Below, piece after piece: positions 16,816 to 32,591 of a DNA stretch of 64,000 nt. Below the pieces are notes generated by a model. It had not been told where the DNA came from and did not search any database. It was given only the letters and a program-made list of their open reading frames with translations. The translations under genes were made by a program, and so were the position numbers. The DNA is from Ruminococcus sp. AM22-13 (GTDB lineage Bacteria > Bacillota > Clostridia > Lachnospirales > Lachnospiraceae): NCBI RefSeq assembly GCF_003471165.1, contig NZ_QRIL01000020.1:11114-75113 (forward strand). The letters are read 5' to 3'. Position 1 is the first letter of the stretch; each line of letters opens with the position of its first letter.

Positions 16816-16819
16816 ATAA

Positions 16820-17863
16820 TTACGCGCGCTCCTTTCGTTTGATGATAAGATAGATAAAGAAGGGGGCGCCCATGATACTTGTGACAACGCCAAGTGGAAG
16901 TTCCATGGACAAAAGGGAACGGGAAATATCATCAACAAGTATCAGGTATCCGCCGCCAAGGATCGCACTTGCAGGTATCAGCCTTCTGTAATCAACACCA
17001 ACCAGTGCACGTGCCAGATGGGGGATCATCAGCCCGACCCATCCGATCAATCCTCCAAGACAGACTGCAGCGGCGCTGAGTAATGTGGAAGCGACTATAA
17101 AAATCAGACGATATTTACGCACATTGATTCCTAAACTTTTGGCTTCTTCTTCATCCAAAGTCAGCAGATTGATCTGCCATCGAAAAATAAAAATCAGACT
17201 TAATCCAATGATCATTGGAAGAACACTCCAGCAAAAGGATTTGGTTGTGGTTTTGGTTAAGCTGCCCATAAGCCAGAAAGTAATTTGCTGGAGAACATCA
17301 TTGGGGTCTGCCACATATTTGATCATTGTGACACCGGCATTGCAGAGTGACATGATCATAGTTCCGGTCAGAACAAGACTGAGGGTCTGGGAATGTGCGG
17401 ATTTTCGGCTGATAAGATAGGATGCGGCTACTGCGGCCACACCACCTGCAAAAGCAGAAAGCTGAATCATCCAGTTGGAAGCTCCGTTTAAAATTGCAAA
17501 AGCAGCTCCGAGACTTGCACCGGAAGAAACTCCAAGGATATCCGGAGATACCAGTGGATTGCGAAACATTCCCTGATAGGTTGCACCTGCTACCGAGAGG
17601 GAAGCACCAATAAATAAAGCAGACAGAATACGGGGCAGACGGATATTCCAGAATATGGTAACTGCCTGGGGTAAAATATCTCCTTTAAAACCAAATTTTG
17701 ATAAAAATGCATTTAGTACCTGCACTGGTGTAAGCGGATAATATCCCACCCAGAATGAGAGTACTATAATGATAAACAAAAGTACCAGCATAACCGCCAA
17801 CAGCAGAACATATCGTCTTTGTCGGGCAGCGGCGGCATTTTTTTCATTAGCTGTCAGATTCAT
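16820..17863 (-). CDS. FecCD-family ABC importer permease
   Basis: 347-residue permease with about ten helices. Family marks are 'FWNIRLPRILSALFIGASLSVAGATYQGMFRNPLVSPDILGVSSGASLGAA' (quoted family block, about residues 70-120, here only noted by its 'RLPR' and 'NPLVSPDILG' motifs), 'GLIGWVGLMIPHLAR', and 'LPLGVVTSIMGAPFFIYL' at the end. These transporters import iron-siderophores, haem, cobalamin, and in the MolB subgroup molybdate or tungstate. The molybdoenzyme locus 2 kb away makes molybdate a possible substrate, but nothing in the sequence decides this. The binding protein gene is divergent, 170 bases away. Confidence 0.88.
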   Translation of the reverse strand: MNLTANEKNAAAARQRRYVLLLAVMLVLLFIIIVLSFWVGYYPLTPVQVLNAFLSKFGFKGDILPQAVTIFWNIRLPRILSALFIGASLSVAGATYQGMFRNPLVSPDILGVSSGASLGAAFAILNGASNWMIQLSAFAGGVAAVAASYLISRKSAHSQTLSLVLTGTMIMSLCNAGVTMIKYVADPNDVLQQITFWLMGSLTKTTTKSFCWSVLPMIIGLSLIFIFRWQINLLTLDEEEAKSLGINVRKYRLIFIVASTLLSAAAVCLGGLIGWVGLMIPHLARALVGVDYRRLIPASAILGGGYLILVDDISRSLLSMELPLGVVTSIMGAPFFIYLIIKRKERA

Positions 17864-18032
17864 AATCCTTCATCCTTGTAACTTGACTAATCAAATTTAC
17901 GGTGTTATACTCAGAAAAACCGAATTGTTTTTAAAAACTATTCGCATATACATTATAATACTTAAAAATTGTATAGTCAATTTCAATAAGCGTCAATTAT
18001 GAGTAATGCGGAGAAAAGAAAGGAGAGAGTCT

Positions 18033-19157
18033 ATGAAAAAGCACAGACAACTTTTGGCTCTGTTTATATGTCTGGTGATGTCAGTCAGTCTTTTAACAGG
18101 ATATTCTGAGACGAAAGCTGCTACTGAAGAGCCGACGCAGAGTGCGGAGCAGGATGCCACGCAGGAAACTGCTGAAACCCGTGAGATCACAGACATGGCA
18201 GGAAGAAAAGTAACTGTCCCAACAGCAGAAAATATTGAATCTGTTTTTTCAGCGGGTCCTGTAGCTGCAATTTTTCTGTATATGGTTGCACCGGATAAGC
18301 TTCTTGGGTGGAATTATGAACTGAATGATGTTGAGAAATCTATTATTCTGGACAAATATCAGGATCTTCCTAATTTTGGAATGGGTGATGCTGTCAATTA
18401 TGAAGCAGTAATTGCTGCCAATCCTACAATTGCTATTAATAGTGGAAAGATTAATGATGCAATGGTTTCTGATTGCGATGCGTTATCAGAAAGCCTTGGA
18501 ATTCCGGTTGTTGCAGTAGACAACGAGCTTAATAATTCTGCGGAAGCTTTTCGTTTTATGGGCGAACTTCTTGGTGTAGAAGATCATGCAGAAGAGCTTG
18601 CCCAGTATGCGGAGCAGGTATTTACTGATATTAATGCACTTTCAGATATTCCAGAAGAAAAGAAAGTCAGTGTATACTTCGGTAATGGAGAGGATTCACT
18701 GGAAACTGCACCCAGGGGATCCCAGCATGCACAGATTCTTGATGCCATCAATGCAGTCAATGTTGCAGATCTGGAATTGGGAGATGGATCTCGTGTTCAG
18801 ATTTCAGCAGAACAGCTTCTTGCATGGGATCCGGATGTGATTGTTGTAAATGGTGAACCAAAGGCAGATAAAAGCGGAAGTTCTGCAGCAGAAGATATCC
18901 TGAGCAATCCTGATTATGCTTCATTAAAAGCAGTACAGGACCAAAAGGTTTATGGAACTCCGAATGCACCGTTTAGCTGGGTGGATCGTCCGGCAGGACC
19001 AAATCGTCTGATCGGTATGCGATGGTTCTCAGCATTGATTTATCCGGAATATATTAAATGTGATATCAATGAAGAAATACATAAATTTTTCGATCTTTTT
19101 TATCATGTTGATCTGTCCGATGAACAGTTGGAAAATGTTCTGAAAGGAACTTTATAA
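18033..19157 (+). CDS. FecB/BtuF-type binding protein without lipobox cysteine
   Basis: 374-residue substrate-binding protein of the helical-backbone class III type ('TREITDMAGRKVTVP' opening, 'SVFSAGPVAAIFLYMVAPDKLLG', and the C-terminal 'NAPFSWVDRPAGPNRLIGMRW'). The signal peptide (residues about 1-25) ends 'LLTGYSETKA' where a lipoprotein would read LTGC: TAT (Tyr) replaces the expected TGT (Cys). It could be cut by ordinary signal peptidase after the nearby Ala and released rather than anchored. The ATG at 18033 follows AAGGAGAG; upstream in-frame codons have no such site. It pairs with the divergent permease-ATPase operon. Confidence 0.9.
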   Translation: MKKHRQLLALFICLVMSVSLLTGYSETKAATEEPTQSAEQDATQETAETREITDMAGRKVTVPTAENIESVFSAGPVAAIFLYMVAPDKLLGWNYELNDVEKSIILDKYQDLPNFGMGDAVNYEAVIAANPTIAINSGKINDAMVSDCDALSESLGIPVVAVDNELNNSAEAFRFMGELLGVEDHAEELAQYAEQVFTDINALSDIPEEKKVSVYFGNGEDSLETAPRGSQHAQILDAINAVNVADLELGDGSRVQISAEQLLAWDPDVIVVNGEPKADKSGSSAAEDILSNPDYASLKAVQDQKVYGTPNAPFSWVDRPAGPNRLIGMRWFSALIYPEYIKCDINEEIHKFFDLFYHVDLSDEQLENVLKGTL

Positions 19158-19201: not shown

Positions 19202-19250
19202 AAAAAGAAACGCTGGTTCCGGTAAATACCGGTTCCGGCGTTTCTTTTTA
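19202..19250. terminator. Bidirectional terminator between convergent genes
   Basis: AAAAAGAAACGC pairs with GCGTTTCTTTTT, with an inner CCGGTA/TACCGG stem and a two-base mismatch, leaving T runs on both strands. It serves the binding protein gene and the leftward molybdoenzyme-accessory operon. Confidence 0.85.
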
Positions 19251-20108
19251 TAATTTTCGGATTATTGCGCTTCCATGCAGATCGCATACAGGATCTGCAA
19301 ACAGATGGTTTTTCAGACAGAATTCCCCAACCGCTTTTCGGCATCCGGAAAACTGTGTACTGTACACATCGTGAACCAAGAGAACTCCTCCGGTGGCCAG
19401 GCGTTCATAGAACAGAGGAAGTGCAGCAGCAGTTGGAGCATAGAGATCCGCGTCCAGAGATACAAAACAAAAAGTTTCATCTCTAACATCGGAAAAGGTA
19501 TCTGGAAACCATCCTTTGTGGATCACAGTACGTGTAGGATCTGGCATAACATGAATAACAGAGTCAATATCAGTAGAAGAAAAATCACCTGTTTTGGCGC
19601 GGGACAGATTACCGGAGGCTTCTATTGTGATATCCTTTTCTGAAAAGCCCTCAAAAGTATCAAAAAGATGGATTTTTCGGTCTGGAAAGGCTGCACTGAT
19701 CAGGGAAGAAAATTCACCTCGGAAAACACCCAGTTCTGCAACATTTCCCGGAATATCCAATTGATAGATCTGCTCAGATAAAAGACGCATAACAGCAACC
19801 CGTGCGTCAAACATGCGAAGGACGGAGGGATCACGAAAAGGTCCGTGATAACCCAGGTTTTCCATCTGTTTTATCATAGAATTACGCCGTTCTTCATCCA
19901 GAACTCCCAGGATGACCAGATCCGGGAGAAGTGCTACTGCAGCATCCGGAGAACAGACTGGAATATTCCCAATATAGGATCCGTGTTTATGGGGGTCATT
20001 ATCAGCAAAGCACAGGAGCTGGCAGGGACTGTTGAGAAGTCTTGCTGTCATTTGTCCAATTTGTCCGGCACCAAATATTACAGCTTTATATACTGATTTT
20101 GCCATCAT
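19248..20108 (-). CDS. TylF/MycF-like methyltransferase with N-terminal nucleotide-binding domain
   Basis: 286-residue two-domain protein. Residues 1-95 form a Rossmann-like domain ('KAVIFGAGQIGQMTARLL', 'CFADNDPHKHGSYIGNIPV') as in PglD or CoA-binding domains. Residues about 115-285 are a TylF-family methyltransferase: 'GNVAELGVFRGEFSSLISAAFP', 'IHLFDTFEGF', metal-site 'FVSLDADLYAPTAAAL' and 'VLLVHDVYS'. It overlaps the xdhC-like gene by four bases, as the last gene of the leftward operon. The substrate is unknown; its position suggests a step in maturation of the molybdenum cofactor or of its product. Family members methylate sugars in antibiotic pathways. Confidence 0.85.
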   Translation of the reverse strand: MMAKSVYKAVIFGAGQIGQMTARLLNSPCQLLCFADNDPHKHGSYIGNIPVCSPDAAVALLPDLVILGVLDEERRNSMIKQMENLGYHGPFRDPSVLRMFDARVAVMRLLSEQIYQLDIPGNVAELGVFRGEFSSLISAAFPDRKIHLFDTFEGFSEKDITIEASGNLSRAKTGDFSSTDIDSVIHVMPDPTRTVIHKGWFPDTFSDVRDETFCFVSLDADLYAPTAAALPLFYERLATGGVLLVHDVYSTQFSGCRKAVGEFCLKNHLFADPVCDLHGSAIIRKL

Positions 20109-21130
20109 TTTGATGTAGCCTTTCTGTCAGCACGAACCTGGATCATCTGTCCTGTGATGGAAATGGCGATTTCAGCCGGTGTTTCTGCTTTGATCTCCAG
20201 TCCTATAGGTGAGATGATACGGTTTAAATCTTGTTCATTAATGTTGTATTCTTCAATCAGACGGCGAAATACAGCAGCTTTTTTTGTGCGGCTTCCAATG
20301 ACGCCTATATAGCATGCAGGTGTAGCGAGAAGCTGTGCCTGTACAATGGTATCATAGGAATGTCCGCGTGTCATGACGCAGCAATAATCAGCAGCTGTGA
20401 TAGAAACATACTGCTTTAGATGGTTGAAATCACAAAGTATTGTTTCAACTGCTCCCGGGAAAAGAGCAGGATCTGTAAATTCCGGCCGGTCATCCAGGAC
20501 AACACAGCGAAAATCAACGCTTGCAAGGATTGGGACAAGCTTTTGTGAGACATGTCCGCCGCCGAATACATAGACAGTTCCTGAGGTTCCAATCTGTTCA
20601 GAAAACAGATCATAATCTTCACTGTGATATCGGTGTGGCTTTGCAGATAAAGAAGATAACACAGAAGAAGGAACATTGGCAGTTCCGATGAGACCGCATG
20701 CAGGACTGTAGAGGCTCACACCGGAGGTGGTGAGAAGATCGCAGATCAGCCAGAAATCTTTTCGCTTTTCATAGAATTTTTCCGCAGTTTCTGTGATTTC
20801 CATAATAATCGGATCGTTATGATTAAGATACTGGAAAAAGGCCGTAACATCACCACCACAGATCATGCCAATATTTTCAACATCTTTATGATTCAGCCGG
20901 AATTCATGCTGGCAGGATTCCTTTTTTTCAAGAATATCCAATGCCATACATTCAGCACGATATTCTACAGCTCCACCTCCGATGGTTCCGGAAATTCTGC
21001 CGTTTTTTCCGACCAGCATGCGGGAACCGGCACCTCTTGGCGTAGAACCTGAGGATGCTGTGACGGAAACAAGTACAAGATCGTTTCCCTCCAGGAATTG
21101 TTGTTTTATTGTCTGAAATAATGTTCTCAT
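20105..21130 (-). CDS. XdhC/CoxI-family molybdenum hydroxylase maturation protein
   Basis: 341-residue XdhC-type protein. The N-terminal XdhC/CoxI domain has 'TASSGSTPRGAGSRMLV' and 'GTIGGGAVE' (residues about 23-60), followed by 'GMICGGDVTAFFQ'. The C-terminal Rossmann domain reads 'VYVFGGGHVSQKLVPILASV' near residue 185 and 'YIGVIGSRTKKAAVFRRL' near 275. XdhC binds molybdenum cofactor, helps place the sulfido ligand, and inserts it into xanthine dehydrogenase-family enzymes; the oxidoreductase at 23746 is the obvious client. The gene is third in the leftward operon, overlapping the methyltransferase start by four bases. Confidence 0.92.
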   Translation of the reverse strand: MRTLFQTIKQQFLEGNDLVLVSVTASSGSTPRGAGSRMLVGKNGRISGTIGGGAVEYRAECMALDILEKKESCQHEFRLNHKDVENIGMICGGDVTAFFQYLNHNDPIIMEITETAEKFYEKRKDFWLICDLLTTSGVSLYSPACGLIGTANVPSSVLSSLSAKPHRYHSEDYDLFSEQIGTSGTVYVFGGGHVSQKLVPILASVDFRCVVLDDRPEFTDPALFPGAVETILCDFNHLKQYVSITAADYCCVMTRGHSYDTIVQAQLLATPACYIGVIGSRTKKAAVFRRLIEEYNINEQDLNRIISPIGLEIKAETPAEIAISITGQMIQVRADRKATSK

Positions 21131-21195
21131 ATAATAAAATACCTCCTAACTAAATTAAGTGATTTTTCTGCTTCGGTTGTGTATGTCTGTCTGGA

Positions 21196-22269
21196 CTAAA
21201 GCGTGATATGGCAGAGTGACTGTATCATGTCCTGCAGTTTACGGGCTTGTTCTAACTGCTGCTCATGAGCTTTGCAAGCTTCTGGACTTTTGCATTTACT
21301 CATGCTGTCGGCAAATCTTTTTTCTATGGTTACACGCTGTGTTTCCTGAATCAGTTTATCAGCCAGAAATACAATGGCTGCTTCATTCAGCCTGGTTTCC
21401 AGCAAACCATGGTGCTGTGAAATAATCTGGCTGATCTCAGGATAACCTAATTGTAAGAAAAGTTCACCGCCTGTTTTCGTGTGATTCCTCTGAAGTCTGG
21501 CAATATCATGCAGAAGTGCACCGGAGCGAACAAGCTTCTGATCAAAGATATAACCATTGGATTCCAGCATATTGCATAAACAACAGGCAAGTCCAGTAAC
21601 AGCATCACTGTGAGCTTGTACATGACGGGGCAGAGAAACCGCATTGCGAAGCCTGAGACATAGCCCGTCATTTAATTCAGGATGAGGCAGTATATAACTG
21701 GGGTCAGAGAAAGAAATATTATTTTTTTCATTCACTTCCAGATGATAGTAAGAGCCGCAGGGAAGACGAAATCGCTGTCTGCTGTACATACCGGAATGTA
21801 ATGCATATATATAAGAAGAGATTACATCTGTATGAGCTACCACTGCAATATCACCTTCAGAAGCGCAAAGAATCTTATGAACTGCCTGCGAAAAGCGAAA
21901 ACCAGATGCAGCAGGAGTTTCTGCTCCCGGGATCGGATGATCAGGGTTATTTTCACGGGCTTTATAAATGTCCGGCCATCTCTGGCGTATTTTATCAAAA
22001 GAAAGGCCATCCCATTCTCCCAGATTTCGTTCTGACAGATCAGAAACAATTATATGTGGAAGCTCAGGTGCCATATGGCCTGCTGTCTCAACAGCTCTTA
22101 ACAAAGGACTGCAGTATATCCTTGATATTTTATCGGACAATTCTTCATTAAGAAGGACTGCCTGCAAGTGTCCAAGCATGGATAGAGAGAAATCTGTCTG
22201 TCCCACACAGTAAGAATGTTCATCCGGATACTGTGGTTTTCCATGCCGGACCAGATAAAGGCTACGCAT
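21196..22269 (-). CDS. Histidine phosphatase fused to an HD-domain protein
   Basis: 357-residue fusion. Residues 1-195 are a histidine phosphatase (phosphoglycerate mutase-like): 'LVRHGKPQYP' with the phosphorylated His, 'YCSPLLRAVETAGHM', and the second catalytic His in 'IAVVAHTDVISSYIY'. Residues about 220-350 are an HD domain: 'HSDAVTGLACCL', 'RSGALLHDIARLQ' (metal-binding HD) and 'QHHG'. CobC-like phosphatases and HD hydrolases both act on nucleotide or cofactor intermediates. It overlaps the NTP transferase stop by eight bases, which fits a shared nucleotide-cofactor pathway. The pairing with that transferase supports a role in cofactor maturation, by inference. Confidence 0.85.
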   Translation of the reverse strand: MRSLYLVRHGKPQYPDEHSYCVGQTDFSLSMLGHLQAVLLNEELSDKISRIYCSPLLRAVETAGHMAPELPHIIVSDLSERNLGEWDGLSFDKIRQRWPDIYKARENNPDHPIPGAETPAASGFRFSQAVHKILCASEGDIAVVAHTDVISSYIYALHSGMYSRQRFRLPCGSYYHLEVNEKNNISFSDPSYILPHPELNDGLCLRLRNAVSLPRHVQAHSDAVTGLACCLCNMLESNGYIFDQKLVRSGALLHDIARLQRNHTKTGGELFLQLGYPEISQIISQHHGLLETRLNEAAIVFLADKLIQETQRVTIEKRFADSMSKCKSPEACKAHEQQLEQARKLQDMIQSLCHITL

Positions 22270-23191
22270 TTAAAAATCCTCCGAAACATTCTTCAAATAT
22301 TTTTTTTGAACAGGAACGTGTTTCTTCTGAAAAACGGGCATATCGTTTCAGAAATTCTTCACCGTATGGTGTCAGTTCACTATGGCTTCCCCTTGTACCG
22401 CCCTGGCTTCTGATGATCAGAGGTTCATGAAGCTGTGATTCCAGGGTATGGATCAGGTTCCAGCTGGTAGAATAGGAAATGTGCATGCGCTCACAGGCAT
22501 CACGGACAGATCCTGTTTCATGGATCAGTGTAAGCAGCGAATAGAGCTTTTCATCAAAAAAAACTTTTTCCCGGGCTAGCTGAATATGGATTTCAGAACG
22601 GATCAGGCTCTGGTTGTGTATGCGGAGGAGTTCATCGTAATCCTCTGGTGTATCAGCATCATGAATAATACCGGGATCCTCTACATTAAGATAATACATG
22701 GGTTCCCCGCAATTATCCACAGCACCTTTAAGTCCTGATTTTCCGTCATCACTTAGAATGGAATCAATCAGTGTGGAACGAATCAGAATGGGATGACCGG
22801 GATTGCCATTACAGACCGGAGTTACAAGGGGACGCCCCAGAGAGAGCATTTGCGTGACTGTATGGGCTGTGAACAGCGGAACATCAACAGGTGTAAAGAG
22901 TACCGTATCCACTTTGTCTTTCAGATACTCAAGTCCGATCCTGACAGAATCAAACATATGAGTGTTTGCATAGTTCTCATTTCGAAGAAAGACTACATTA
23001 TTGGAAGCCAGGTGGCATTCCAGAACATCTGCATGATATCCGGTTACCACTACTACTTTGGAGATTCCGGCCTGCCGGAAATTATTGATCACGCGCTGTG
23101 CGATGGAAATGGAGCCAAGCTGAAGCATGGGTTTAAAGTCTCCCATTCGTGATGATTTCCCCGCAGCCACGATGAGGGCGCCTGTCTGCAT
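22262..23191 (-). CDS. MobA-like NTP transferase fused to ModE-like HTH (DVU_1551 type)
   Basis: 309-residue two-domain protein. Residues 1-190 are a MobA/MocA-type nucleotidyltransferase: 'LIVAAGKSSRMGDFKPML' binds NTP, and 'VLFTPVDVPLFTAHTV' supplies the metal aspartate. MocA and MobA add CMP or GMP to molybdopterin. Residues about 205-300 resemble the N-terminal winged helix of ModE: 'IHETGSVRDACERMHISYSTSWNLIHTLE' and 'GGTRGSHSELTPYGEEFLKRY'. It is first in the leftward operon and divergent from the oxidoreductase operon, so the HTH may control both. The ribosome binding site GAAGGAGG directly precedes the ATG. Confidence 0.88.
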   Translation of the reverse strand: MQTGALIVAAGKSSRMGDFKPMLQLGSISIAQRVINNFRQAGISKVVVVTGYHADVLECHLASNNVVFLRNENYANTHMFDSVRIGLEYLKDKVDTVLFTPVDVPLFTAHTVTQMLSLGRPLVTPVCNGNPGHPILIRSTLIDSILSDDGKSGLKGAVDNCGEPMYYLNVEDPGIIHDADTPEDYDELLRIHNQSLIRSEIHIQLAREKVFFDEKLYSLLTLIHETGSVRDACERMHISYSTSWNLIHTLESQLHEPLIIRSQGGTRGSHSELTPYGEEFLKRYARFSEETRSCSKKIFEECFGGFLNA

Positions 23192-23401
23192 TCAGATACC
23201 TCCTTCTTTCAATGATATTATACAAATTTGATATTATTATAACATATAAAAGAATAAAAATAGTTAAAATTTTAAATAAAACAAAATAAAATTGTCTGGA
23301 ATATATAAAGTAGCCAACTATTAATTATTTGTAATTTGTATAATTGTGCAAAATCATGGTAGTATGGATATATAAAATAACGTGGACAGGAGAACTTTTT
23401 T

Positions 23402-23662
23402 ATGGATAAGATTTTTGAGATTACCGCAAAAGAAGTTACTGTACAGGTAAAAGATGAGCGTACAGGGGTTGTATACAGCCGGACGCTTCCCATCGATTAT
23501 TATGAGAATGCAAATGTTTTAAAGCTCAGCGGTGAGAATCTGGACGGGAGTAGCTCTTCCATTGTTTTCTATTCTGCCAGAGGAATAGAGAGACTGAAAG
23601 ATCTGACAGGCAAAGGGGCTGATCATGATCCGTGTGGAGTGCATAAGCCTGAAGATCGGTAA
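23402..23662 (+). CDS. Small conserved-looking protein at the head of the oxidoreductase operon
   Basis: 86-residue soluble protein not recognised. It starts 'MDKIFEITAKEVTVQVKDERTG', suggesting several beta strands, carries a Ser-rich 'GENLDGSSSSIVFYSARGIE' turn, and ends in a His/Cys-containing 'GADHDPCGVHKPEDR' tail that could bind metal. GGACAGGAGAA lies before the ATG. It is the first gene of the rightward operon, 83 bases before the oxidoreductase start, with a degenerate inverted repeat (23675-23714) in the gap. A role with the molybdoenzyme is inferred only from position. Confidence 0.65.
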   Translation: MDKIFEITAKEVTVQVKDERTGVVYSRTLPIDYYENANVLKLSGENLDGSSSSIVFYSARGIERLKDLTGKGADHDPCGVHKPEDR

Positions 23663-23674
23663 TATTAAAATAAC

Positions 23675-23714
23675 GTAACTATTCAGCGGTCATTGTGAAG
23701 GCGCTAACAGTTAC
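23675..23714 (+). repeat. Short remnant resembling a miniature-element end
   Basis: GTAACTATTCAG at 23675-23686 and AACAGTTAC at 23706-23714 match the left end and internal CAGTTAC of the 109-bp element (58108-58134). The centre is absent and no target duplication is seen. It may be a relic, or a hairpin regulating the oxidoreductase gene. Confidence 0.4.
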
Positions 23715-23745
23715 GGAATGCGTGTTTTTAAAGGAGGTATGGAAC

Positions 23746-26508
23746 ATGATTAAAAAGACATTGAAGATTAATGGTGTTGAGAGAATACTTATTCTTGATA
23801 AGGATGAGACACTGGCGCAGGTACTCCGTAATCACCTTCTTCTTACAGGATGTAAGATCGGCTGCGGTGAAGGTCACTGTGGAGCCTGTAATGTTATTAT
23901 GAACGGAAAAGTTACAAGATCCTGTATCTACAAGATGAGCCGTGTTCCCGATCATGCAGAGATCACAACCATTGAGGGTGTGGGAACACTTTCTGATATG
24001 CACCCGATCCAGGTTGCGTGGATGGCATATGGATGTGCACAGTGCGGTTTCTGTTCACCGGGCTTTATTATTTCGGCAAAAGTGCTTCTGGATAATAATC
24101 CAAGCCCTACCCGTGAAGAGGTAAGAGACTGGTTTAACAAACAGCGTAATCTCTGCCGTTGTACAGGTTACAAGCCGCTGATCGATGCTACTATGGCAGC
24201 AGCAGCAGTTATGCGCGGTGAGATGACAAAGGAAGATCTTGTGTTCAAACAGACAGGGGATTCTATTGTTGGAACAAACTATATCCGTCCGTCAGCAGCA
24301 CAGAAGGTAACAGGTACCTGGGACTTTGGTGCGGATGATGCGTTAAAGATGCCTTCAGGAACACTTCGTCTTGCTCTTACACAGGCAAAGGTTTCTCATG
24401 CAAATATCCTCAGCATTGACACAGCAGAAGCAGAGAGCATGCCTGGTGTTGTTCGAGTTATCACAGCAAAAGATATTAAGGCAGCAGGCGGAACTAATAA
24501 GATCAATGGTCTTGTAATGCTTCCAAAACACAACAAGACAGACGGTTTTGAACGTCCTGTACTCTGCGATGAAAAAATCTTCCAGTTTGGTGATGCGATT
24601 GCCATCGTAGCTGCTGATACAGAAGAGCATGCACGTGCAGCAGCAGAAGCAGTTAAAGTTGAGATTGAAGAGCTTCCTGCATACATGAATGCAATGGATG
24701 CCATCGCACCGGATGCAGCGGAGATCCATCCCGGTACTCCGAACGCATTCTTTGAGACAAACTGTATCAAGGGCCCTGATTTTGACTGGGACAGCATTCC
24801 GGATTCACAGCAGGTTGAGATAGAATCTTACTGTTCACGTCAGCCTCATCTTCATCTTGAGCCGGACTGCGGTTATGGTTATATTGACGAAGACGGTATG
24901 ATAACTGTTCATTCCAAATCCATTGGTATCCATCTGCATATGCCTATGATCGCTGATGGTATCGGTGTGCCAATGGAGAACTTACGAATTGTTCAGAATC
25001 ATGCAGGAGGAACCTTTGGTTACAAGTTCTCTCCTACAAATGAGGCTTTGATCGGTGCTGCTGTTAAGATTCTTGAACGTCCAGTATCTCTGGTATTTAA
25101 TCAGTTCCAGAATATTACATATACAGGAAAGAGATCTCCTGCATTTATGAATATCAAGCTTGCAGCAGATGAAAACGGTAAGCTTCTTGCACTCTGGGGC
25201 AATAACTATGTGGATCATGGTCCATACTCAGAATTCGGTGACCTGCTTACAATGAGACTTTCCCAGTTTACAGGTGCAGGTTATGGAATCAATTCTATCC
25301 GTAATAAATCTACAACAGTATTTACAAACCACGCATGGGGTTCCGCATTCCGTGCTTACGGTTCTCCGCAGTCTTACATGGGATCTGAGATCGCGATAGA
25401 TGTTCTGGCAGCAAAGATGGGAATCGACCCGTTCGATATCCGTGAAATGAACTGTTACAAAGAATCCGAAGGCAGTACGATCCCTACAGGTTATCCGCCT
25501 GAAGTATACTGTGAAGAAGATCTGTTCAAGACAGCACGTCCACTGTATGAAGCAGCTAAGAAACGTGTGGCTGAAAAGAATGCAGCTTCTGATGGTAAGA
25601 TCAAATATGGCATCGGTGTATCTCTCGGTGTATATGGCTGTGGCCTTGACGGTGTTGATACATCAAACGCATTTGCAGAGCTGAATCCGGATGGAACAGT
25701 TACAATGTATGCTGCATGGGAAGATCATGGACAGGGCGCTGATATGGGTGTTCTTGTATCATCTCATGAAACACTTCGTCAGGCAGGAATCAGACCGGAA
25801 CAGATTAAACTTGTTATGAATGATACCAAGACATGTCCTAATGCAGGTCCTGCAGGTGGATCACGTTCACAGGTTATGTCAGGTAATGCATGTCGTCTGG
25901 CAGCAGAAAACCTTGTGGCAGCCATGAAAAAAGAAGACGGAACATTTCGTACTTATGATGAAATGGTGGCTGAAGGTCTTGCAACAAAATATGAAGGTAA
26001 CTGGGTAACAACCTTCTGTGCAGATCATCCGATTGATCAGGATACAGCACAGGGAGATCCATTTGCAACCTACATGTACACGATCTTCCTTCCGGAAGTT
26101 GCTGTTAATACAGAAACAGGTAAAGTTAAAGTTGAGAAGTTCACCTGTGTGGCTGATGTAGGTACGATTATGAACAGACTTCTTGTAGAAGGCAACTTCT
26201 ACGGTGGTCTTGTACAGGGTATCGGTCTTGCTCTTACAGAAGATTTCGAGGATCTGAACCATGATACTTCTCTGAAAAACTGTGGTATTCCGTATCCAAA
26301 TGATGCGCCGGATGATATTGAACTTCATTTCAATGAAACATATCGTCCAAGTGGTCCTTACGGTGCTGCCGGCTGTGGTGAGGCTCCGTTGGATGCTCCT
26401 CATCCTGCAATCCTGAATGCAATCTACAATGCTACAGGCGCACGTATCACACGTGTTCCTGCCCGCCCTGAAAAGATTCTTGCAGCATTAAAGGAACTTG
26501 AAAAATAA
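23746..26508 (+). CDS. Molybdopterin-dependent aldehyde oxidoreductase (MOP-type, single chain)
   Basis: 920-residue enzyme of the xanthine oxidase family in one chain without FAD domain, like Desulfovibrio aldehyde oxidoreductase (907 residues). [2Fe-2S] ligands fall at C40, C45, C48, C60 and C100, C103, C137, C139, the same numbers as in that enzyme. Moco-domain motifs include 'GGTFGYKFSPTNEA', 'GQGADMGVLV', 'GPAGGSRSQVMSG' and 'GAAGCGEAPLDAPHPA' with the catalytic Glu at about 879. It oxidises an aldehyde or N-heterocycle, passing electrons to Fe-S partners. The start is set by AAGGAGGT at 23731-23738; a longer frame from 23695 is rejected. Flanking genes supply maturation and electron transfer. 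Confidence 0.95.
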   Translation: MIKKTLKINGVERILILDKDETLAQVLRNHLLLTGCKIGCGEGHCGACNVIMNGKVTRSCIYKMSRVPDHAEITTIEGVGTLSDMHPIQVAWMAYGCAQCGFCSPGFIISAKVLLDNNPSPTREEVRDWFNKQRNLCRCTGYKPLIDATMAAAAVMRGEMTKEDLVFKQTGDSIVGTNYIRPSAAQKVTGTWDFGADDALKMPSGTLRLALTQAKVSHANILSIDTAEAESMPGVVRVITAKDIKAAGGTNKINGLVMLPKHNKTDGFERPVLCDEKIFQFGDAIAIVAADTEEHARAAAEAVKVEIEELPAYMNAMDAIAPDAAEIHPGTPNAFFETNCIKGPDFDWDSIPDSQQVEIESYCSRQPHLHLEPDCGYGYIDEDGMITVHSKSIGIHLHMPMIADGIGVPMENLRIVQNHAGGTFGYKFSPTNEALIGAAVKILERPVSLVFNQFQNITYTGKRSPAFMNIKLAADENGKLLALWGNNYVDHGPYSEFGDLLTMRLSQFTGAGYGINSIRNKSTTVFTNHAWGSAFRAYGSPQSYMGSEIAIDVLAAKMGIDPFDIREMNCYKESEGSTIPTGYPPEVYCEEDLFKTARPLYEAAKKRVAEKNAASDGKIKYGIGVSLGVYGCGLDGVDTSNAFAELNPDGTVTMYAAWEDHGQGADMGVLVSSHETLRQAGIRPEQIKLVMNDTKTCPNAGPAGGSRSQVMSGNACRLAAENLVAAMKKEDGTFRTYDEMVAEGLATKYEGNWVTTFCADHPIDQDTAQGDPFATYMYTIFLPEVAVNTETGKVKVEKFTCVADVGTIMNRLLVEGNFYGGLVQGIGLALTEDFEDLNHDTSLKNCGIPYPNDAPDDIELHFNETYRPSGPYGAAGCGEAPLDAPHPAILNAIYNATGARITRVPARPEKILAALKELEK

Positions 26509-26591
26509 CTGTTAGTATAATTTTATCATGTGCTATAATAAGGGGAGACGGGAGACTGTCTCCCCTTTGGAAATGAAAGGAGTATCGGGTT

Positions 26592-28886
26592 ATGACATAT
26601 ATACAGGAAAGAGGTTCCACTCATGTTTATCACGTAAATCGAATGTCAAAGGAAGAGATGGATCATATGATCGGTCTCTGTGTTCATGAACAGCCGGCGT
26701 ACTGTGTTGCAGCCTGTCCTTTCAAAGCAGATACAAAAGAAATGTTGTTTTATGCTGCAAAAGGAAACTTTAAGAAAGCTCTGGCTATCTATGAAAAGAT
26801 CACACCATTTCCCATGATCCTCTGTGACGGATGTACTGCACCCTGTGAGGAGAAATGCAGACTCTGTGAGCTGGGTGATGGCATATCTATACGTGAAGTA
26901 GAACGTGCCATTGTCCGATATGGGGAACCTGGAAAACGGAGCAGTGTATTTCGTATCAGAAAGAAAAAAAAGGCTGTGATTTTTGGCTCAGGATTATTCC
27001 CGCTATTTCTTGCAGGGGAACTGGAAAAGAAGATGTATCCTGCAACCATTTACTGTCAGGAGAAAGATTATGAAGCCTATATTGCAGCAGCAGCACCGGA
27101 GCTTTCGGAATCAGATTGTAGAAATGAAGCAAAACGTCTCAGTTCCATGGATCTTTCCTTTGAATTCGGATGCAGTCTTGACCTTCCGTTTATCAGAGAG
27201 AAAATGAAGGAGGCAGATGTGGTCTGTGCTTCAGAGGAGGTGGCCAAAAAGCTGGCTCCTGAAGAAACAGCAGACGCAGAGATCATGCTGAGAGAACAGG
27301 CAGGGATCGTCAGCGGTCCGGCCCAGTCTGTGATGGATGCGGCTTTTGCTGCAAAAAGAGCTGCCCTGACTGTAGATCTCCTTGTTCAGAACCTTTCACC
27401 CCACAGTAACAGAGGCAGTGAAGGGGCAGTTACCACCAGACTCTATACAAATATGGAAGGGATGAAAGGTTCCAAAAAGATTCCCTGCAGCATAGATGGA
27501 TATTCAAAGGAAGAAGCTGTTGAGGAAGCAAAACGATGCATTCAGTGCCACTGTGATGAGTGTATGAAAAGCTGTGTCTATTTAAGTGAATATAAAAAGC
27601 ACCCTGGTCTTCTTGCACGTGAAATCTATAATAATACCCAGATCATTATGGGAGATCACCAGATGAATAAACCGATGAATTCCTGTTCACTCTGCGGACA
27701 GTGCACTGTAACCTGTCCAAATGGGTTTGATATGAGCCAGGTCTGCAAATCTGCAAGAGAAAATATGGTGTCTACAGACAAGATGCCTCTGGCACCTCAT
27801 GAATTTGCATTGATGGATATGCTGTTCTCCAATTCGGAGGCTTTCTTATGCAGACCTCAGCCGGGATATGAAACCTGCAGATATGTATTTTTCCCGGGAT
27901 GTCAGGCAGGAGCTATAGCGCCGGATGTTGTCACAGAGGCATATGAGGATCTTTGCAGGAGGACAGAGGGCGGTGTTGCTCTGATGCTGGGATGTTGTGG
28001 TGCTATCAGTGAATGGGCAGGACGCTATGAAATGACAGAAAAGGTAAATGAACAGCTGAAGCAGGAACTTGCAAAGCTGGGAGATCCTATGATCATAGCA
28101 GGCTGTCCAAGCTGTATGAAACAGTTAAAAGAGAGTCTTGGTGCCAGAATCACAGGAATCTGGGAGATCTTAAAGGAGATCGGACTTCCCGGACAGGCAA
28201 AAGGACTGGAGATACCTGTTGCAATACATGATGCCTGCGGCGCCAGGGGAAATACACAGACACAGGATACAATAAGAGAGCTTCTTGCAGATATGGGGTG
28301 CACTGTTGTAAACACAAAATATTCCAGAGATCTGTCTCCCTGTTGCGGATACGGCGGACTGACTTCCTACGCTAATAAAGAGATGGCAGATAAAATGACA
28401 GAAAAGTGTCTGGAACGATCCGATGCCCCATATATAACGTACTGCATGGCATGCAGGGACCGATTTGTCAGGGAAGGCAGGGAATCCAGACATATCCTTG
28501 AACTTCTGTATGGCACAAATGCCGTCAATATGCCGGATATCAGTGAAAAACGCTACAACCGGCTTGTGCTAAAAGAGAAGCTTTTAAAAAATATATGGAA
28601 TGAGGAACTGATGATGGAGAAAAAAGATTATACCGTTGCATATACAGAAGATGCTATCAGTATGATGGATGAACGTATGATACTGAAAAGTGATGTGGAG
28701 CGTGTATTATCAGATTACAGAGAAAACCAGGAAGCGATTTTTGATGAAGAGACAAAAGAACTGGTGACAAGGAGCAGACTTGGAAATGTGACATTCTGGG
28801 TGCGATTTGTGGAAACTGAAGAAGGGTATCTGGTACGCAGAGCATACAGTCACAGAATGAATATTATGAAAAGGGTGGGACAGTAA
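26592..28886 (+). CDS. Fe-S / CCG-domain electron-transfer protein with reduced flavin module (DVU_1558 type)
   Basis: 764-residue protein. The order is an N-terminal [4Fe-4S] domain like GltD/DPD ('CVAACPFKADTKEML', 'CDGCTAPCEEKCRLCELGDG'), a short dinucleotide-fold remnant ('KKAVIFGSGLFPLFLAGEL', about 125-245), a GltD-like 'EAKRCIQCHCDECMKSC', a ferredoxin motif 'CSLCGQCTVTCPNGFDM', then two CCG repeats ('FFPGCQAG', 'LGCCGAISEWAGR', 'DACGARG', 'SPCCGYGG') as in HdrB/GlpC, and a C-terminal tail of about 110 residues. It probably shuttles electrons from the oxidoreductase to a quinone, thiol or ferredoxin acceptor. The stop TAA shares its last A with the next ATG. Confidence 0.85.
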   Translation: MTYIQERGSTHVYHVNRMSKEEMDHMIGLCVHEQPAYCVAACPFKADTKEMLFYAAKGNFKKALAIYEKITPFPMILCDGCTAPCEEKCRLCELGDGISIREVERAIVRYGEPGKRSSVFRIRKKKKAVIFGSGLFPLFLAGELEKKMYPATIYCQEKDYEAYIAAAAPELSESDCRNEAKRLSSMDLSFEFGCSLDLPFIREKMKEADVVCASEEVAKKLAPEETADAEIMLREQAGIVSGPAQSVMDAAFAAKRAALTVDLLVQNLSPHSNRGSEGAVTTRLYTNMEGMKGSKKIPCSIDGYSKEEAVEEAKRCIQCHCDECMKSCVYLSEYKKHPGLLAREIYNNTQIIMGDHQMNKPMNSCSLCGQCTVTCPNGFDMSQVCKSARENMVSTDKMPLAPHEFALMDMLFSNSEAFLCRPQPGYETCRYVFFPGCQAGAIAPDVVTEAYEDLCRRTEGGVALMLGCCGAISEWAGRYEMTEKVNEQLKQELAKLGDPMIIAGCPSCMKQLKESLGARITGIWEILKEIGLPGQAKGLEIPVAIHDACGARGNTQTQDTIRELLADMGCTVVNTKYSRDLSPCCGYGGLTSYANKEMADKMTEKCLERSDAPYITYCMACRDRFVREGRESRHILELLYGTNAVNMPDISEKRYNRLVLKEKLLKNIWNEELMMEKKDYTVAYTEDAISMMDERMILKSDVERVLSDYRENQEAIFDEETKELVTRSRLGNVTFWVRFVETEEGYLVRRAYSHRMNIMKRVGQ

Positions 28887-29107
28887 TGGCAGCAGAGAGA
28901 ACATATTATACCATTGATCCTGAGGGAAAGCTGACCTGCATGAAATGCAAGGTTCCTCTTGTAAAAGGAAAAGCAAAATTTATGTATCTGGAGAACGGTT
29001 TTCCTGTTGAGATGCCGGTTTGTCCCAAATGTGGTTTTGTCTATGTTCCGGAAGAACTGGCTCTTGGAAAGGTTCTGGCAGTGGAACGTGCACTGGAGGA
29101 TAAATAG
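28886..29107 (+). CDS. Small CxxC...CxxC redox/zinc-ribbon protein (DVU_1557 type)
   Basis: 73-residue protein with two cysteine pairs, 'CMKC' (about residues 18-21) and 'CPKC' (about 46-49), the pattern of a zinc ribbon or rubredoxin-like site. It starts on the last base of the previous stop codon and ends one base before the next ATG, so it is tightly coupled within the operon. The family is found only in this kind of molybdoenzyme locus as far as I recall. Its role is unknown. Confidence 0.8.
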   Translation: MAAERTYYTIDPEGKLTCMKCKVPLVKGKAKFMYLENGFPVEMPVCPKCGFVYVPEELALGKVLAVERALEDK

Positions 29108-29641
29108 ATGAACAGACATCCCGGAGGGGAAGAGCAGACACTTCATCTTCTGAAAAGCATAGAACTGAAAAAAGGAATGAAAGCTCTGGATCTGGGAGCA
29201 GGAGAGGGAGAGACAGTGCGGATTATGAAAGCATTTGGTCTGAATGTGCAGGGGGTGGATCTTGCTCCGCGAAGCAGTGAGGTGCAGAGGGGAGATTTTC
29301 TGGACCTTCAGTATGCAGCAGACAGTATGGATCTCTGTATCAGCCAGTGTGCATTTTTTGTCAGCAGAAATCAGAAAAAGGCAGTTTCTGAATGCTGGCG
29401 TGTACTGAAAAAGGGAGGATTTCTTTTACTGTCAGATCTGGATCCGGGCAATCTTTTGGAAATTGTGAAAGAAACAGGATTTACGATTCTCTGTCAGGAG
29501 GACCAGACTGCTCTCTGGAGAGAATATTATCTGGAAGCAATCTGGAATGATTCATTCTGCTGCGAAGATTATAAGCTTTTGCAGAATGAATACAAAGGCA
29601 GAAAAATAGGCTATACCATGGTGGTTGGCAGAAAGGAGTAA
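29108..29641 (+). CDS. trsM: SAM-dependent methyltransferase TrsM (DVU_1556 type)
   Basis: 177-residue class I methyltransferase. Motif I 'ALDLGAGEGETVRIMKAFGL' is near residue 25, the post-I acidic residue in 'VQGVDLAP' near 45, motif IV-like 'MDLCISQCAFFVSR' near 70, and 'CWRVLKKGGFLLLSDL' near 90. The N-terminal 'NRHPGGEEQTLHLL' is a family feature. It lies between the small redox protein and the C-GCAxxG-C-C protein, three genes upstream of nothing unrelated, in the constant gene order of TrsM/TrsS loci. The substrate is unknown; a small molecule or cofactor handled with the radical SAM partner is plausible. Confidence 0.83.
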   Translation: MNRHPGGEEQTLHLLKSIELKKGMKALDLGAGEGETVRIMKAFGLNVQGVDLAPRSSEVQRGDFLDLQYAADSMDLCISQCAFFVSRNQKKAVSECWRVLKKGGFLLLSDLDPGNLLEIVKETGFTILCQEDQTALWREYYLEAIWNDSFCCEDYKLLQNEYKGRKIGYTMVVGRKE

Positions 29642-29644
29642 TGT

Positions 29645-30076
29645 ATGGATCTCTACGAAAGAATAATGGAATTAGGCAGCATGGGATATCATTGTTCACA
29701 GATTATTATGATCATGACTCTGGAAACCATAGGAGAGGAAAATCCACAGCTTGTAAAGGCAATGGGAGGCCTTGGAGGAGGAATTGGTTACTGTGGAGAT
29801 ACCTGTGGGTGTCTGACAGGAAGTGCCTGTGCAATCGGATATTTTCTCGGTAATCTGGCTCCTGAGGAGAAGGAAGATGCACAGATGAAGCCGGCTGTAC
29901 AGGAATTATATCAGTGGTTCCGCCAGAAGACAGAGGAAGAATTTGGAGCTTTTTACTGTAAGGATATCACTCATCTGGAATGGGGCATAATTATGGAGAA
30001 ATGTCCCGGACTTATTGCAGATACTTATACAAAAGTTATGGAAATACTGATAGAACGGGAGGTACTGGAGCTTTGA
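29645..30076 (+). CDS. C-GCAxxG-C-C family protein (DVU_1555 type)
   Basis: 143-residue protein of the C_GCAxxG_C_C family. Conserved cysteines are in 'GYHCSQIIM' (about residue 17), 'GYCGDTCGCLTGSACAIGYFLG' (about 49-70, with the GC-x-TG-xx-C variant of the signature) and 'YCKDI...EKCPGLI' near the end. Family members are putative redox or metal-binding proteins, often beside oxidoreductases. GGAG ahead of the ATG at 29645 decides the start; an ATG four bases earlier is out of frame. The C-terminus overlaps the TTG start of the radical SAM gene. Confidence 0.85.
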   Translation: MDLYERIMELGSMGYHCSQIIMIMTLETIGEENPQLVKAMGGLGGGIGYCGDTCGCLTGSACAIGYFLGNLAPEEKEDAQMKPAVQELYQWFRQKTEEEFGAFYCKDITHLEWGIIMEKCPGLIADTYTKVMEILIEREVLEL

Positions 30077-31398
30077 TCACCATCGGCAAAACAAAAAGTG
30101 TCTGTCCGGAATGTATGAAGGTAGTTCCTGCCAAAAAGTGTATTGGTGAAGACGGGATTTATCTGGTAAAGGAATGTAATGCTCATGGGAAATTTCAGAC
30201 TCTGATCTGGGAGGGAAATGTAACAGATTATCTTTCCTGGGAAAGAGAAAATCTCTCAGCAGAAACTCCTGTAAATCCGAAGGTTAAAGAAAAATCCTGT
30301 CCGGATAATTGCGGACTCTGTGAGGAACATGAAAGAAAAGGGTGCTGTATGATCCTGGAAGTCACAAAACGCTGTAATATGCACTGCCCTGTCTGCTTTG
30401 CTTCAGCAGGAGAAGACGGGGAAAACGGAGATATTCCTATCAGTGAAATAGAAAAACAGTATGATTTTCTGATGGCTCACGGAGGTCCTTTTAATATACA
30501 GCTCTCAGGAGGAGAGCCAACCATGAGAGATGATCTGCCTGAGATCATACATATGGGAAGAAAAAAAGGATTTACATTTTTTCAGTTAAATACCAATGGG
30601 ATCCGGCTTGCCAGGGAGGATGGATATGCCAGAAAGCTGAAAAAAGCAGGACTGAATACAGTATTTCTTCAGTTTGACGGTGTGACAGATCAGGTTTATG
30701 AGACTTTGCGTGGGCAGGCTATGATGGAACTGAAGAAAAAGGCGATCTTAAACTGCTCAGAAGCAGAGCTTGGTATTGCTCTTGTGCCGGTCATAGCGCC
30801 GGGAGTAAATGATATGCAGGTAGGGGATATCCTGAAATTTGGTCTGGATCATATGCCCTTTGTCCGTGGCGTACATTTTCAGCCTATCAGTTATTTTGGC
30901 AGATGTTCCCAGAAGCGCCCCACAAATCCCATCACCATACCAAAGATGCTGAGACTTATTGAAGAACAGACAGAGGGACTGATGAAAATTGAGGATTTTG
31001 CAGGCGGCGGAGCAGAGAATCCCTACTGCTCCTTCCATGCAAGTTATCTGAGAAAAGGGGAGCGGGAACTGAAGCTTCTTGAAAAAAAATCAGGAAAAGG
31101 ATGCTGCTGTACTACCAGTGATGATTCCAGACAGTATGTGGAAAATCAGTGGAGCTACAGTACAAAAAACTATGATGAAGGAGAAATGACACAGACAGAT
31201 GCGCTGGATGAGTTTCTGACCCGGATACATAATGAAACCTTTGCAGTATCAGGCATGATCTTTCAGGATGCCTGGAATCTGGATCTTGACCGTCTGAAAC
31301 GCTGTTATATCTGTGAAGTGGATCCTGATTATGGAATGGTGCCATTCTGTGCATATAATCTGACTAATCTGAAAGGAACATATTTATACAGAAAGTGA
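30073..31398 (+). CDS. trsS: Radical SAM protein TrsS
   Basis: 441-residue radical SAM enzyme. An N-terminal Cys-rich region ('SVCPECMKVVPAKK', 'CPDNCGLCEEHERKGCCMILE') precedes the canonical CxxxCxxC 'CNMHCPVC' near residue 103, then 'IQLSGGEPTMRDDLPE' and 'FFQLNTNGIRLAR'. Further cysteines occur near the C-terminus ('NPYCSFHASY', 'GCCCTT', 'CYICEVDPDYGMVPFCAYN'), probably auxiliary clusters. Some relatives are selenoproteins; this one is all cysteine, with no in-frame TGA. The start TTG at 30073 overlaps the previous stop and has GGAGG ten bases upstream. Its chemistry is unknown, and the family is tied to molybdenum hydroxylase loci. Confidence 0.87.
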   Translation: MITIGKTKSVCPECMKVVPAKKCIGEDGIYLVKECNAHGKFQTLIWEGNVTDYLSWERENLSAETPVNPKVKEKSCPDNCGLCEEHERKGCCMILEVTKRCNMHCPVCFASAGEDGENGDIPISEIEKQYDFLMAHGGPFNIQLSGGEPTMRDDLPEIIHMGRKKGFTFFQLNTNGIRLAREDGYARKLKKAGLNTVFLQFDGVTDQVYETLRGQAMMELKKKAILNCSEAELGIALVPVIAPGVNDMQVGDILKFGLDHMPFVRGVHFQPISYFGRCSQKRPTNPITIPKMLRLIEEQTEGLMKIEDFAGGGAENPYCSFHASYLRKGERELKLLEKKSGKGCCCTTSDDSRQYVENQWSYSTKNYDEGEMTQTDALDEFLTRIHNETFAVSGMIFQDAWNLDLDRLKRCYICEVDPDYGMVPFCAYNLTNLKGTYLYRK

Positions 31399-32591
31399 AA
31401 CGATCCAATATAGATGCAATGATCTGTAAGCAGGAAAGAATTACAGATATTACAAGGGAAACAATAATCAAAATACAGTTGGATAAACTGAATGCTGTTC
31501 TGAAAAGAGAAAAAAAAAGGCAGGGATTTTACAGAGATCTGCCGGAAAGGCTGGAAAGCCTTGCTGATCTGAAAACTCTTCCCTTTACAACGGAATCCGA
31601 CCTGGCCCAGAAAGGGAGCAGGATGTTACTATGCTCCCAGGGAGAAATACAGAGGATCATTTCAGAACAGACAAGCGGAACAACCGGTGCAGGTAAACGT
31701 GTATTTTACACAGAAGGAGATTGTGAACATACTATAGAACTTTTTATGGCCGGACTTGGGGAGTTTATTTATCCGGGAAGCAAGACTATGGTTGCCATGC
31801 CGTTTTCCGGTCCTTTTGGACTGGGAGAGCTGATCGCAGAAGCAATCAGACGTATAGGAGCACACCCCCTTTTAACCGGGAACAATAAAACCTATGGTGA
31901 GTTAAAAACAATTCTGGAAGAGGAGCAGCCAGATACTTATGTAGGTATGCCGACAGCACTGCTTTCCATGCTCAGAATGTGTGGAAAAGGCAGTATAAAG
32001 AGAGCACTGGTATCTGGGGATGCCTGTCCGGAAATAGTAATGAAAGAAATAGAAAAAATTCTGGGAACATCACTCTGGCCTCATTATGGTTCCAGAGAGA
32101 TAGGACTTGGGGGCGCAATCTGCTGTCAGGCTCATGAGGGCATGCACATGAGAGAGAATCACTGTATCACAGAAATCATAGATAAAGAGGGAAATGTTCT
32201 GTCTGACGGTCAATGGGGAGAACTGGTGATCACAACCATTGGGATGGAGGCACAGCCTATGATCAGATATCGGACCGGTGATCATACACGTATCATACCC
32301 GGAAAATGTATCTGTGGAAGTGAGATAAGGCGTCTGGATTTTGTAAGACGGATCGACCAGTCCCAAAGCATGAGAGAAATGGATGAATTACTGTTTCAGA
32401 TTCCGGAACTGGTAGATTGCTGTGTAAGGAGTGTTGGAGGGACAAAAGAAATCACAGCATTTTTTACATCAGACAACGGAGAAGAACTGATCAGAAATGT
32501 CTGTGCAGAGAAAAATATTATTTCTTTGGATTGCAGAAAAGCAGAATGGAGCGATAGGGCATTGTATCCTGCGAAACGTATTATTTTATAG
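31395..32591 (+). CDS. AMP-dependent CoA ligase-like enzyme (DVU_1553 type)
   Basis: 398-residue member of the phenylacetate-CoA ligase/acyl-adenylate superfamily. The P-loop 'SEQTSGTTGAGKRVFYTEGD' lies near residue 90, the 'YGSREIGLGGAIC' motif near 235, and 'MIRYRTGDHTRI' near 300 with the ATP-ribose Asp. It is shorter than PaaK and ends soon after the GD motif, so the C-terminal domain is reduced. The GTG start overlaps the TrsS stop, with no good ribosome binding site, implying coupling. It may activate a carboxylate, possibly the acid formed by the aldehyde oxidoreductase; that link is inferred. Confidence 0.85.
   Translation: MKRSNIDAMICKQERITDITRETIIKIQLDKLNAVLKREKKRQGFYRDLPERLESLADLKTLPFTTESDLAQKGSRMLLCSQGEIQRIISEQTSGTTGAGKRVFYTEGDCEHTIELFMAGLGEFIYPGSKTMVAMPFSGPFGLGELIAEAIRRIGAHPLLTGNNKTYGELKTILEEEQPDTYVGMPTALLSMLRMCGKGSIKRALVSGDACPEIVMKEIEKILGTSLWPHYGSREIGLGGAICCQAHEGMHMRENHCITEIIDKEGNVLSDGQWGELVITTIGMEAQPMIRYRTGDHTRIIPGKCICGSEIRRLDFVRRIDQSQSMREMDELLFQIPELVDCCVRSVGGTKEITAFFTSDNGEELIRNVCAEKNIISLDCRKAEWSDRALYPAKRIIL

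What the first reader, a model, noticed from the sequence alone, without database searches (positions are those of the whole stretch)
19248..32591. Complete two-operon molybdenum hydroxylase locus of the DVU_1551-1559/TrsS-TrsM type
A MOP-type oxidoreductase with Fe-S cysteines at the same positions as the Desulfovibrio enzyme is surrounded by twelve tightly spaced genes that recur together: NTP transferase, phosphatase-HD, XdhC, methyltransferases, radical SAM TrsS, C-GCAxxG-C-C protein, small redox protein, Fe-S/CCG protein and CoA ligase. A radical SAM enzyme, two methyltransferases, an NTP transferase and a ligase go far beyond ordinary Moco insertion. They may build a modified cofactor or a peptide/thio cofactor, or process the oxidoreductase product. 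The function of this set is, to my knowledge, undescribed.
Basis: partly seen in the sequence, partly recalled or inferred. Interest (0 to 1): 0.85.

Follow-up and report, generated by a model that had tools for sequence, protein, structure and literature searches.

The report
Aldehyde oxidoreductase with private radical-SAM cassette
This bacterial DNA carries the same kind of aldehyde-oxidising molybdenum enzyme that has been studied for decades in Desulfovibrio gigas, packed with a conserved set of helper genes, including a relative of the enzyme that joins archaeal membrane lipids, that nearly always accompanies the enzyme and whose job is unknown.

Summary
The locus is real: 12 genes in two divergent operons. 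The enzyme is a full-length homologue of the D. gigas/D. desulfuricans aldehyde oxidoreductase (MOP). The cassette MOP-DIC-1557-MT-CGA-TrsS-ligase (plus XdhC, NTP transferase/HD/phosphatase) recurs from sulfate reducers and a Chloroflexi MAG to Bacillota. MOP and TrsS co-occur in 127 of 137 genomes with either (199 searched, family of a Desulfovibrio MAG) and in 19 of 24 (299 searched, the window's presumed phylum). The TylF methyltransferase is not part of it. D. gigas has the cassette beside mop, yet its AOR is described with ordinary MCD at 1.28 A, so a permanent molybdopterin modification is unlikely. The pterin role once proposed for the TrsS relative MJ0619 was not corroborated; MJ0619 is the tetraether synthase Tes, whose fold and metal ligands TrsS keeps. 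DIC joins an Nfn/GltD-like domain to an HdrB-like double-CCG module. DVU_1557 ends exactly in E-(D/E)-K in 97 of 97 complete homologues. Seven cassettes sit beside MOPs with replaced pocket residues, so the cassette follows the scaffold rather than one substrate. Best guess: TrsS, ligase and MT make or attach a redox group used by a MOP-DIC-1557 electron relay. Biochemistry is untested.

The parts
19248..20108 (-). NeuD-N/TylF-type methyltransferase; in the minus operon but not part of the conserved cassette
   Evidence: Pfam PF05711; found in 2 of 117 sources, window and L062
20105..21130 (-). XdhC-type AOR maturation factor
   Evidence: NF045664 300.6 bits, cut-off 350; XdhC_C and XdhC_CoxI Pfam
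21196..22269 (-). histidine phosphatase fused to HD domain (HD is the C half of DVU_1551)
   Evidence: PF00300, PF01966; NF045665 over residues 202-353, 129 bits
22262..23191 (-). MocA-like NTP transferase (N half of DVU_1551) fused to a ModE-type HTH
   Evidence: NF045665 195.9 bits, TIGR03310 123.8, TIGR00637 53.7, all below cut-off; PF12804, PF00126
23402..23662 (+). 86-aa protein of unknown family, first gene of the plus operon
   Evidence: tblastn homologues in L001-L005/L062 (same genus, 91-97%) and at 37-42% in L055/L075, L069, L071, L070; no Pfam
23746..26508 (+). MOP, D. gigas-type aldehyde oxidoreductase (mechanical ORF from 23695)
   Evidence: NF045668 1520.5 bits; 1dgj/1sij full length; 55% identity to D. 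gigas
26592..28886 (+). DIC: Nfn/GltD-like N domain, 4Fe-4S dicluster, HdrB-like double CCG module
28886..29107 (+). DVU_1557: CxxC..CxxC ribbon with invariant C-terminal E-D/E-K tail
   Evidence: NF045645 93.8 bits; tail 97 of 97 complete sequences
29108..29641 (+). DVU_1556-type SAM methyltransferase (short)
   Evidence: NF045667 120.8 bits, cut-off 155
29645..30076 (+). C-GCAxxG-C-C redox protein (DVU_1555)
   Evidence: NF045669 155 bits; PF09719
30073..31398 (+). TrsS radical SAM enzyme, Tes-like, no selenocysteine codon (start TTG 30073 inferred)
31395..32591 (+). AMP-forming PaaK-like ligase (DVU_1553)
   Evidence: NF045666 334.6 bits; phenylacetate-CoA ligase 4r1l, E 1.2e-26

Best explanation
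This is an intact D. gigas-type aldehyde oxidoreductase system. XdhC and the NTP transferase (with HD and phosphatase) supply the molybdopterin cytosine dinucleotide. MOP oxidises an aldehyde and passes electrons through its two 2Fe-2S clusters to DIC, whose HdrB-like double-CCG site hands them to a sulfur-type or other acceptor, with DVU_1557 as a docking or carrier domain whose free C-terminal E-D-K tail is essential. TrsS, the ligase, the methyltransferase and the C-GCAxxG-C-C protein make or attach the group used by this electron relay: the ligase activates a carboxylate, TrsS functionalises an unactivated carbon by Tes-like chemistry (substrate radical trapped on a sulfur of the C-terminal 4Fe-4S cluster), the MT methylates. 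Shown here: gene content, conservation, co-occurrence, predicted folds and metal-ligand conservation. Inferred: MCD supply by these particular genes, MOP-to-DIC electron flow, acceptor type, need for the tail, and every step of the TrsS module.
Confidence: 0.4

Rival explanations
1. The TrsS module matures or reactivates MOP itself: it makes a labile ligand or modification at or near the Mo site, or a protein modification, lost or overlooked in the purified enzyme.
For: TrsS usually accompanies MOP even when unlinked; one TrsS beside four MOPs in the genome of Solidesulfovibrio alcoholivorans (G362); the ligase is fused to the NTP transferase/HD/phosphatase in L204; activation of inactive D. 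gigas AOR is said to differ from that of desulfo-XO (PMC10223205 passages).
Against: D. gigas structures are described with normal MCD and the cassette is present there; TrsS distances track DIC more than MOP; several MOP+ genomes lack a detected TrsS.
Confidence: 0.25
2. A substrate pathway: the carboxylate made by MOP is activated by the ligase, methylated and radically coupled by TrsS, possibly to a lipid or aromatic product.
For: TrsS has the fold of tetraether lipid synthase Tes; the ligase resembles phenylacetate-CoA ligase; 101 of 116 MOPs share the pocket F425/F494/L497/Y535/L626.
Against: Seven cassettes lie beside MOPs with TVKFI, TGDYE, CHHFI, VMSFG or CLVFF at these positions; TrsS has about 71 residues where Tes has about 116 between the two aligned stretches, which may leave less room for lipids (not established); extra MOP paralogues in L217-L219 have no module of their own.
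Confidence: 0.2
3. TrsS modifies molybdopterin permanently, giving a new Mo cofactor.
For: NTP transferase and XdhC in the same unit; Pfam calls the TrsS N-terminal ribbon HMPTM, as I recall after a pterin methyltransferase.
Against: The pterin role of MJ0619 was not corroborated and the protein is the tetraether synthase (PMC9433317 passages); D. gigas AOR is described with plain MCD despite the cassette.
Confidence: 0.07

Closest known systems
Desulfovibrio gigas / D. desulfuricans MOP aldehyde oxidoreductase (PDB 1SIJ/1VLB, 1DGJ)
   Same: Full-length homologue, all eight Fe-S cysteines, Glu869 and the five pocket residues; D. gigas has the same neighbours up to where the fetched stretch ends in XdhC
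   Different: 55-57% identity; host near a different phylum; divergent two-operon layout
DVU_1551-1559 / TrsS neighbourhood (NCBIfam NF045645, NF045646, NF045663-NF045669)
   Same: All nine models match proteins here, six over their cut-offs
   Different: XdhC, MT and DVU_1551 below cut-off; DVU_1551 split, one part with a ModE-type HTH; extra 86-aa gene; no selenocysteine in TrsS
Tetraether lipid synthase Tes / GDGT-MAS (MJ0619, 7TOL/7TOM)
   Different: 348.6 bits, below the Tes cut-off of 450; shorter; a conserved cysteine cluster (C344-C346) absent or incomplete in six Tes-like relatives
Heterodisulfide reductase HdrB and other CCG proteins (LutA, EtfD)
   Same: DIC residues 429-648: HdrB fold, two complete CCG motifs
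   Different: Nfn/GltD-like N domain in front; no Hdr family match
Peptide-borne cofactor systems (PqqA, mycofactocin MftA; recalled, from no call)
   Same: Small protein with conserved C-terminus beside a radical SAM enzyme
   Different: DVU_1557 is a metal-ribbon-like protein sometimes fused to DIC; TrsS is Tes-like; no modification shown

Membership tests
MOP-type aldehyde oxidoreductase | NF045668 score over curated cut-off | tested here: met
   1520.5, cut-off 1100
MOP-type aldehyde oxidoreductase | Eight 2Fe-2S cysteines, Glu869 and Tyr535 | tested here: met
MOP-type aldehyde oxidoreductase | MCD cofactor and aldehyde activity | not testable with these tools
   needs protein
TrsS | NF045646 score over cut-off and CxxxCxxC | tested here: met
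   610.2, cut-off 490; motif
TrsS | selenocysteine (some members only, so not strictly defining) | tested here: not met
   open frame without TGA
Tes / GDGT-MAS | NF045702 over cut-off | tested here: not met
   348.6, cut-off 450
Tes / GDGT-MAS | fold, ligands of the four metal sites, labile Met | tested here: met
Tes / GDGT-MAS | two hydrophobic lipid pockets | tested here: inconclusive
   only lengths compared; no model coordinates analysed
Heterodisulfide reductase HdrB/HdrD | two complete CCG motifs and dicluster domain | tested here: met
   96 of 96 sequences
Heterodisulfide reductase HdrB/HdrD | match to a named Hdr family model | tested here: not met
   none among 13 NCBIfam hits at E up to 0.001
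Heterodisulfide reductase HdrB/HdrD | disulfide reduction | not testable with these tools
   needs assay
XdhC_rel_AOR maturation factor | NF045664 over cut-off | tested here: not met
   300.6, cut-off 350; both XdhC Pfam domains present
PqqA/MftA-like precursor | C-terminal core modified by the radical SAM enzyme | not testable with these tools
   only the invariant tail is seen

The most novel reading that the evidence does not exclude
DVU_1557 is the protein substrate or carrier of the cassette: its invariant free C-terminus (E-x-x-L-E-D-K) is adenylated, methylated or radically modified by ligase, MT and TrsS to give a new protein-borne redox group that shuttles electrons between MOP and the HdrB-like site of DIC, an aldehyde:acceptor system overlooked around one of the best-studied xanthine-oxidase-family enzymes.
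Probability: 0.13. Interest if true: 0.92.

Novelty: new variant of a known kind. Interest (0 to 1): 0.72.

Why it matters
D. gigas AOR was the first crystal structure of the xanthine oxidase family and has been studied for almost 40 years with flavodoxin as putative partner (PMC10223205, abstract start and passages). Its gene sits in a cassette with an HdrB-like protein and a Tes-like radical SAM enzyme that nearly always accompany it, across phyla and in MAGs from animal guts (record titles). This makes the physiological partner and purpose of the enzyme directly testable, and also the chemistry of bacterial Tes homologues, which occur in organisms not known to make biphytanyl chains (PMC9433317 passage).

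Tried and rejected
Rejected: TylF methyltransferase as part of the unit. Pterin methylation by TrsS on the strength of the Pfam name. A permanent modified Mo cofactor. TrsS as selenoprotein here (no TGA; the one TGA flagged in G319 is at the very end of the match). Ordinary Moco insertion alone. Loci without TrsS in cis first looked like MOPs free of TrsS, but 18 of 20 chosen genomes have TrsS somewhere (17 over cut-off); G363 and G364 do not, and L122 was not tested. Rechecking 12 odd genomes for MOP: of the four TrsS-only genomes G491 and G568 have MOP fragments at contig ends, G379 none, G548 only a 268-bit hit. DIC-only genomes show that DIC is not unique to the cassette. Folds not seen in a second-look list were not taken as absent.

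Literature: TrsS with radical SAM, 1 paper (a table row and citations); tags DVU1554/1555/1558/1559, 3 papers listed, passages of two seen, in table rows only; DVU1551-1553/1556/1557/1560, none; tetraether lipid synthase with Desulfovibrio, none; Tes/AOR/XdhC/selenoprotein, none; CCG domain/AOR/radical SAM, 4 listed, none opened; AOR with heterodisulfide reductase, 3 listed, passages of PMC6436200 seen, not about this cassette. The D. gigas genome paper has no 'radical SAM' (PMC4287179, passages).

Limits: the tool does not name the phylum or family groups. Thresholds differ: curated cut-offs in the 299 set, E<1e-60 (TrsS) and E<1e-200 (MOP) in the 199 set. The gene-order scan used profiles grown from window proteins with my own bit thresholds, and some loci are the same place twice (L067/L151, L126/L209), so the sequence counts include duplicates. 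Rows dropped: 10 of 126 MOP hits under 1300 bits before the pocket count, and 1 of 98 DVU_1557 hits, cut off by its contig end (L115). Pocket positions in diverged MOPs depend on the alignment. No model coordinates were analysed.
Full report
Observation. The window encodes, on the minus strand, an NTP transferase with a ModE-type HTH, a histidine phosphatase/HD protein, XdhC and a TylF-type methyltransferase. On the plus strand it encodes an 86-aa protein, MOP, DIC, DVU_1557, a DVU_1556 methyltransferase, a C-GCAxxG-C-C protein, TrsS and an AMP-forming ligase. Six proteins pass their curated NCBIfam cut-offs; XdhC, the MT and the two halves of DVU_1551 do not. That makes 12 genes, not MOP plus twelve. 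MOP aligns over its whole length with 1DGJ and 1SIJ, at 57 and 55% identity, with all eight Fe-S cysteines, Glu869 and the pocket residues F425, F494, L497, Y535 and L626. The residue roles are recalled.

Is it a unit? Of 299 genomes of the nearest held genome's phylum (inferred to be Bacillota; at least 90% completeness asked), TrsS passes its cut-off in 20, MOP in 23, both in 19. The twentieth TrsS genome, G132, has a MOP fragment (953 bits) at the end of the same contig. Of the four MOP genomes without a passing TrsS, three have weaker TrsS hits (G129, G139, G348) and G250 none. The ligase passes in 19 of 299, all MOP positive. DIC passes in 28: 22 MOP genomes and six without MOP or TrsS over cut-off; G139 and G132 lack a DIC hit. 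In 199 genomes of the family of L098 (a Desulfovibrio MAG), MOP (E<1e-200) is in 133, TrsS (E<1e-60) in 131, both in 127, neither in 62 (Fisher p 2.6e-39, uncorrected for kinship). Two of the four TrsS-only genomes turned out to have MOP fragments. Among 80 named loci from a search with the two crystal-structure AORs, 54 hold at least 8 kb downstream of MOP: TrsS is in cis in 46, all ten families in 29, and the order MOP-DIC-1557-TrsS-ligase in 45. Of the eight without TrsS in cis, six have it elsewhere in the genome, L177 does not, L122 was not tested. The TylF methyltransferase was found in 2 of 117 sources. The 86-aa gene recurs in cassette loci of related genomes and, at 37-42% identity, of four more distant ones.

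The decisive comparison. One genome (G393) matches D. gigas AOR at 100% over 906 residues. Its contig is 3,693,899 bases long, the chromosome size published for D. gigas (PMC4287179, passages). Downstream of mop it carries DIC-1557-MT-CGA-TrsS-ligase and the start of XdhC. The enzyme is described with molybdopterin cytosine dinucleotide, at 1.28 A with 'amazing definition' of the pterin rings (PMC10223205, passages); that the crystals were of protein purified from D. gigas itself is recalled. A permanent change of the Mo cofactor by TrsS is thus unlikely; a labile group or an effect elsewhere is not excluded.

What the cassette follows. Of 116 MOPs scoring at least 1300 bits, 101 have the D. 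gigas pocket (71 with TrsS in the held stretch, 30 without). Seven (L079-L084, L086) have quite different residues there yet have TrsS, DIC and 1557 in cis; the ligase is in cis in four of these stretches. Of three MOP paralogues without a module beside them, L218 and L219 have changed pockets and L217 does not. One TrsS was found beside four MOPs in G362. Hence the cassette seems to follow the scaffold, not one aldehyde. TrsS pairwise distances track DIC (0.81) more than MOP (0.66) in 59 loci, a weak hint because history is shared. Fusions TrsS-ligase and ligase-NTP transferase-HD-phosphatase, one case each, tie the module together.

Reading. The best fit is an electron-relay system, MOP to DIC/1557, whose redox group or tail is made by TrsS, ligase, MT and the C-GCAxxG-C-C protein (0.4). 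Maturation of MOP itself (0.25) and a substrate pathway (0.2) remain as rivals. The paper cited for TrsS (Haft and Tolstoy 2025) could not be read and may already describe the neighbourhood.

Noticed in passing
window 14579-19157: FecCD/BtuCDF-type ABC transporter with a methyltransferase and a THEP1-like NTPase upstream; similar transporter genes lie beside the cassette in L065 and L148. The binding protein's PDB matches include 4pag at 124 bits and HI_1472 at 46 bits: perhaps an oxyanion or metal-complex importer.
   Followed up: partly
window 28886-29107 and 97 sequences from loci: DVU_1557 has an invariant exact C-terminus E-D/E-K.
   Followed up: yes
window 22262-23191: NTP transferase fused to a ModE-type HTH, which could tie cofactor maturation to molybdate-responsive regulation.
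   Followed up: no
window 23402-23662: 86-aa ORF of no Pfam family, recurring in other cassette loci.
   Followed up: partly
L223 and L224: DIC paralogues of 840-849 aa with a fuller pyridine-nucleotide oxidoreductase domain, next to rhodanese genes and, in L223, a YedE/FdhT-like gene.
   Followed up: partly
window 56903-56988: ZMP/ZTP riboswitch on the minus strand.
   Followed up: no
genus of G001: MOP over the cut-off in 5 of 37 genomes of the nearest genus, a patchy distribution.
   Followed up: no
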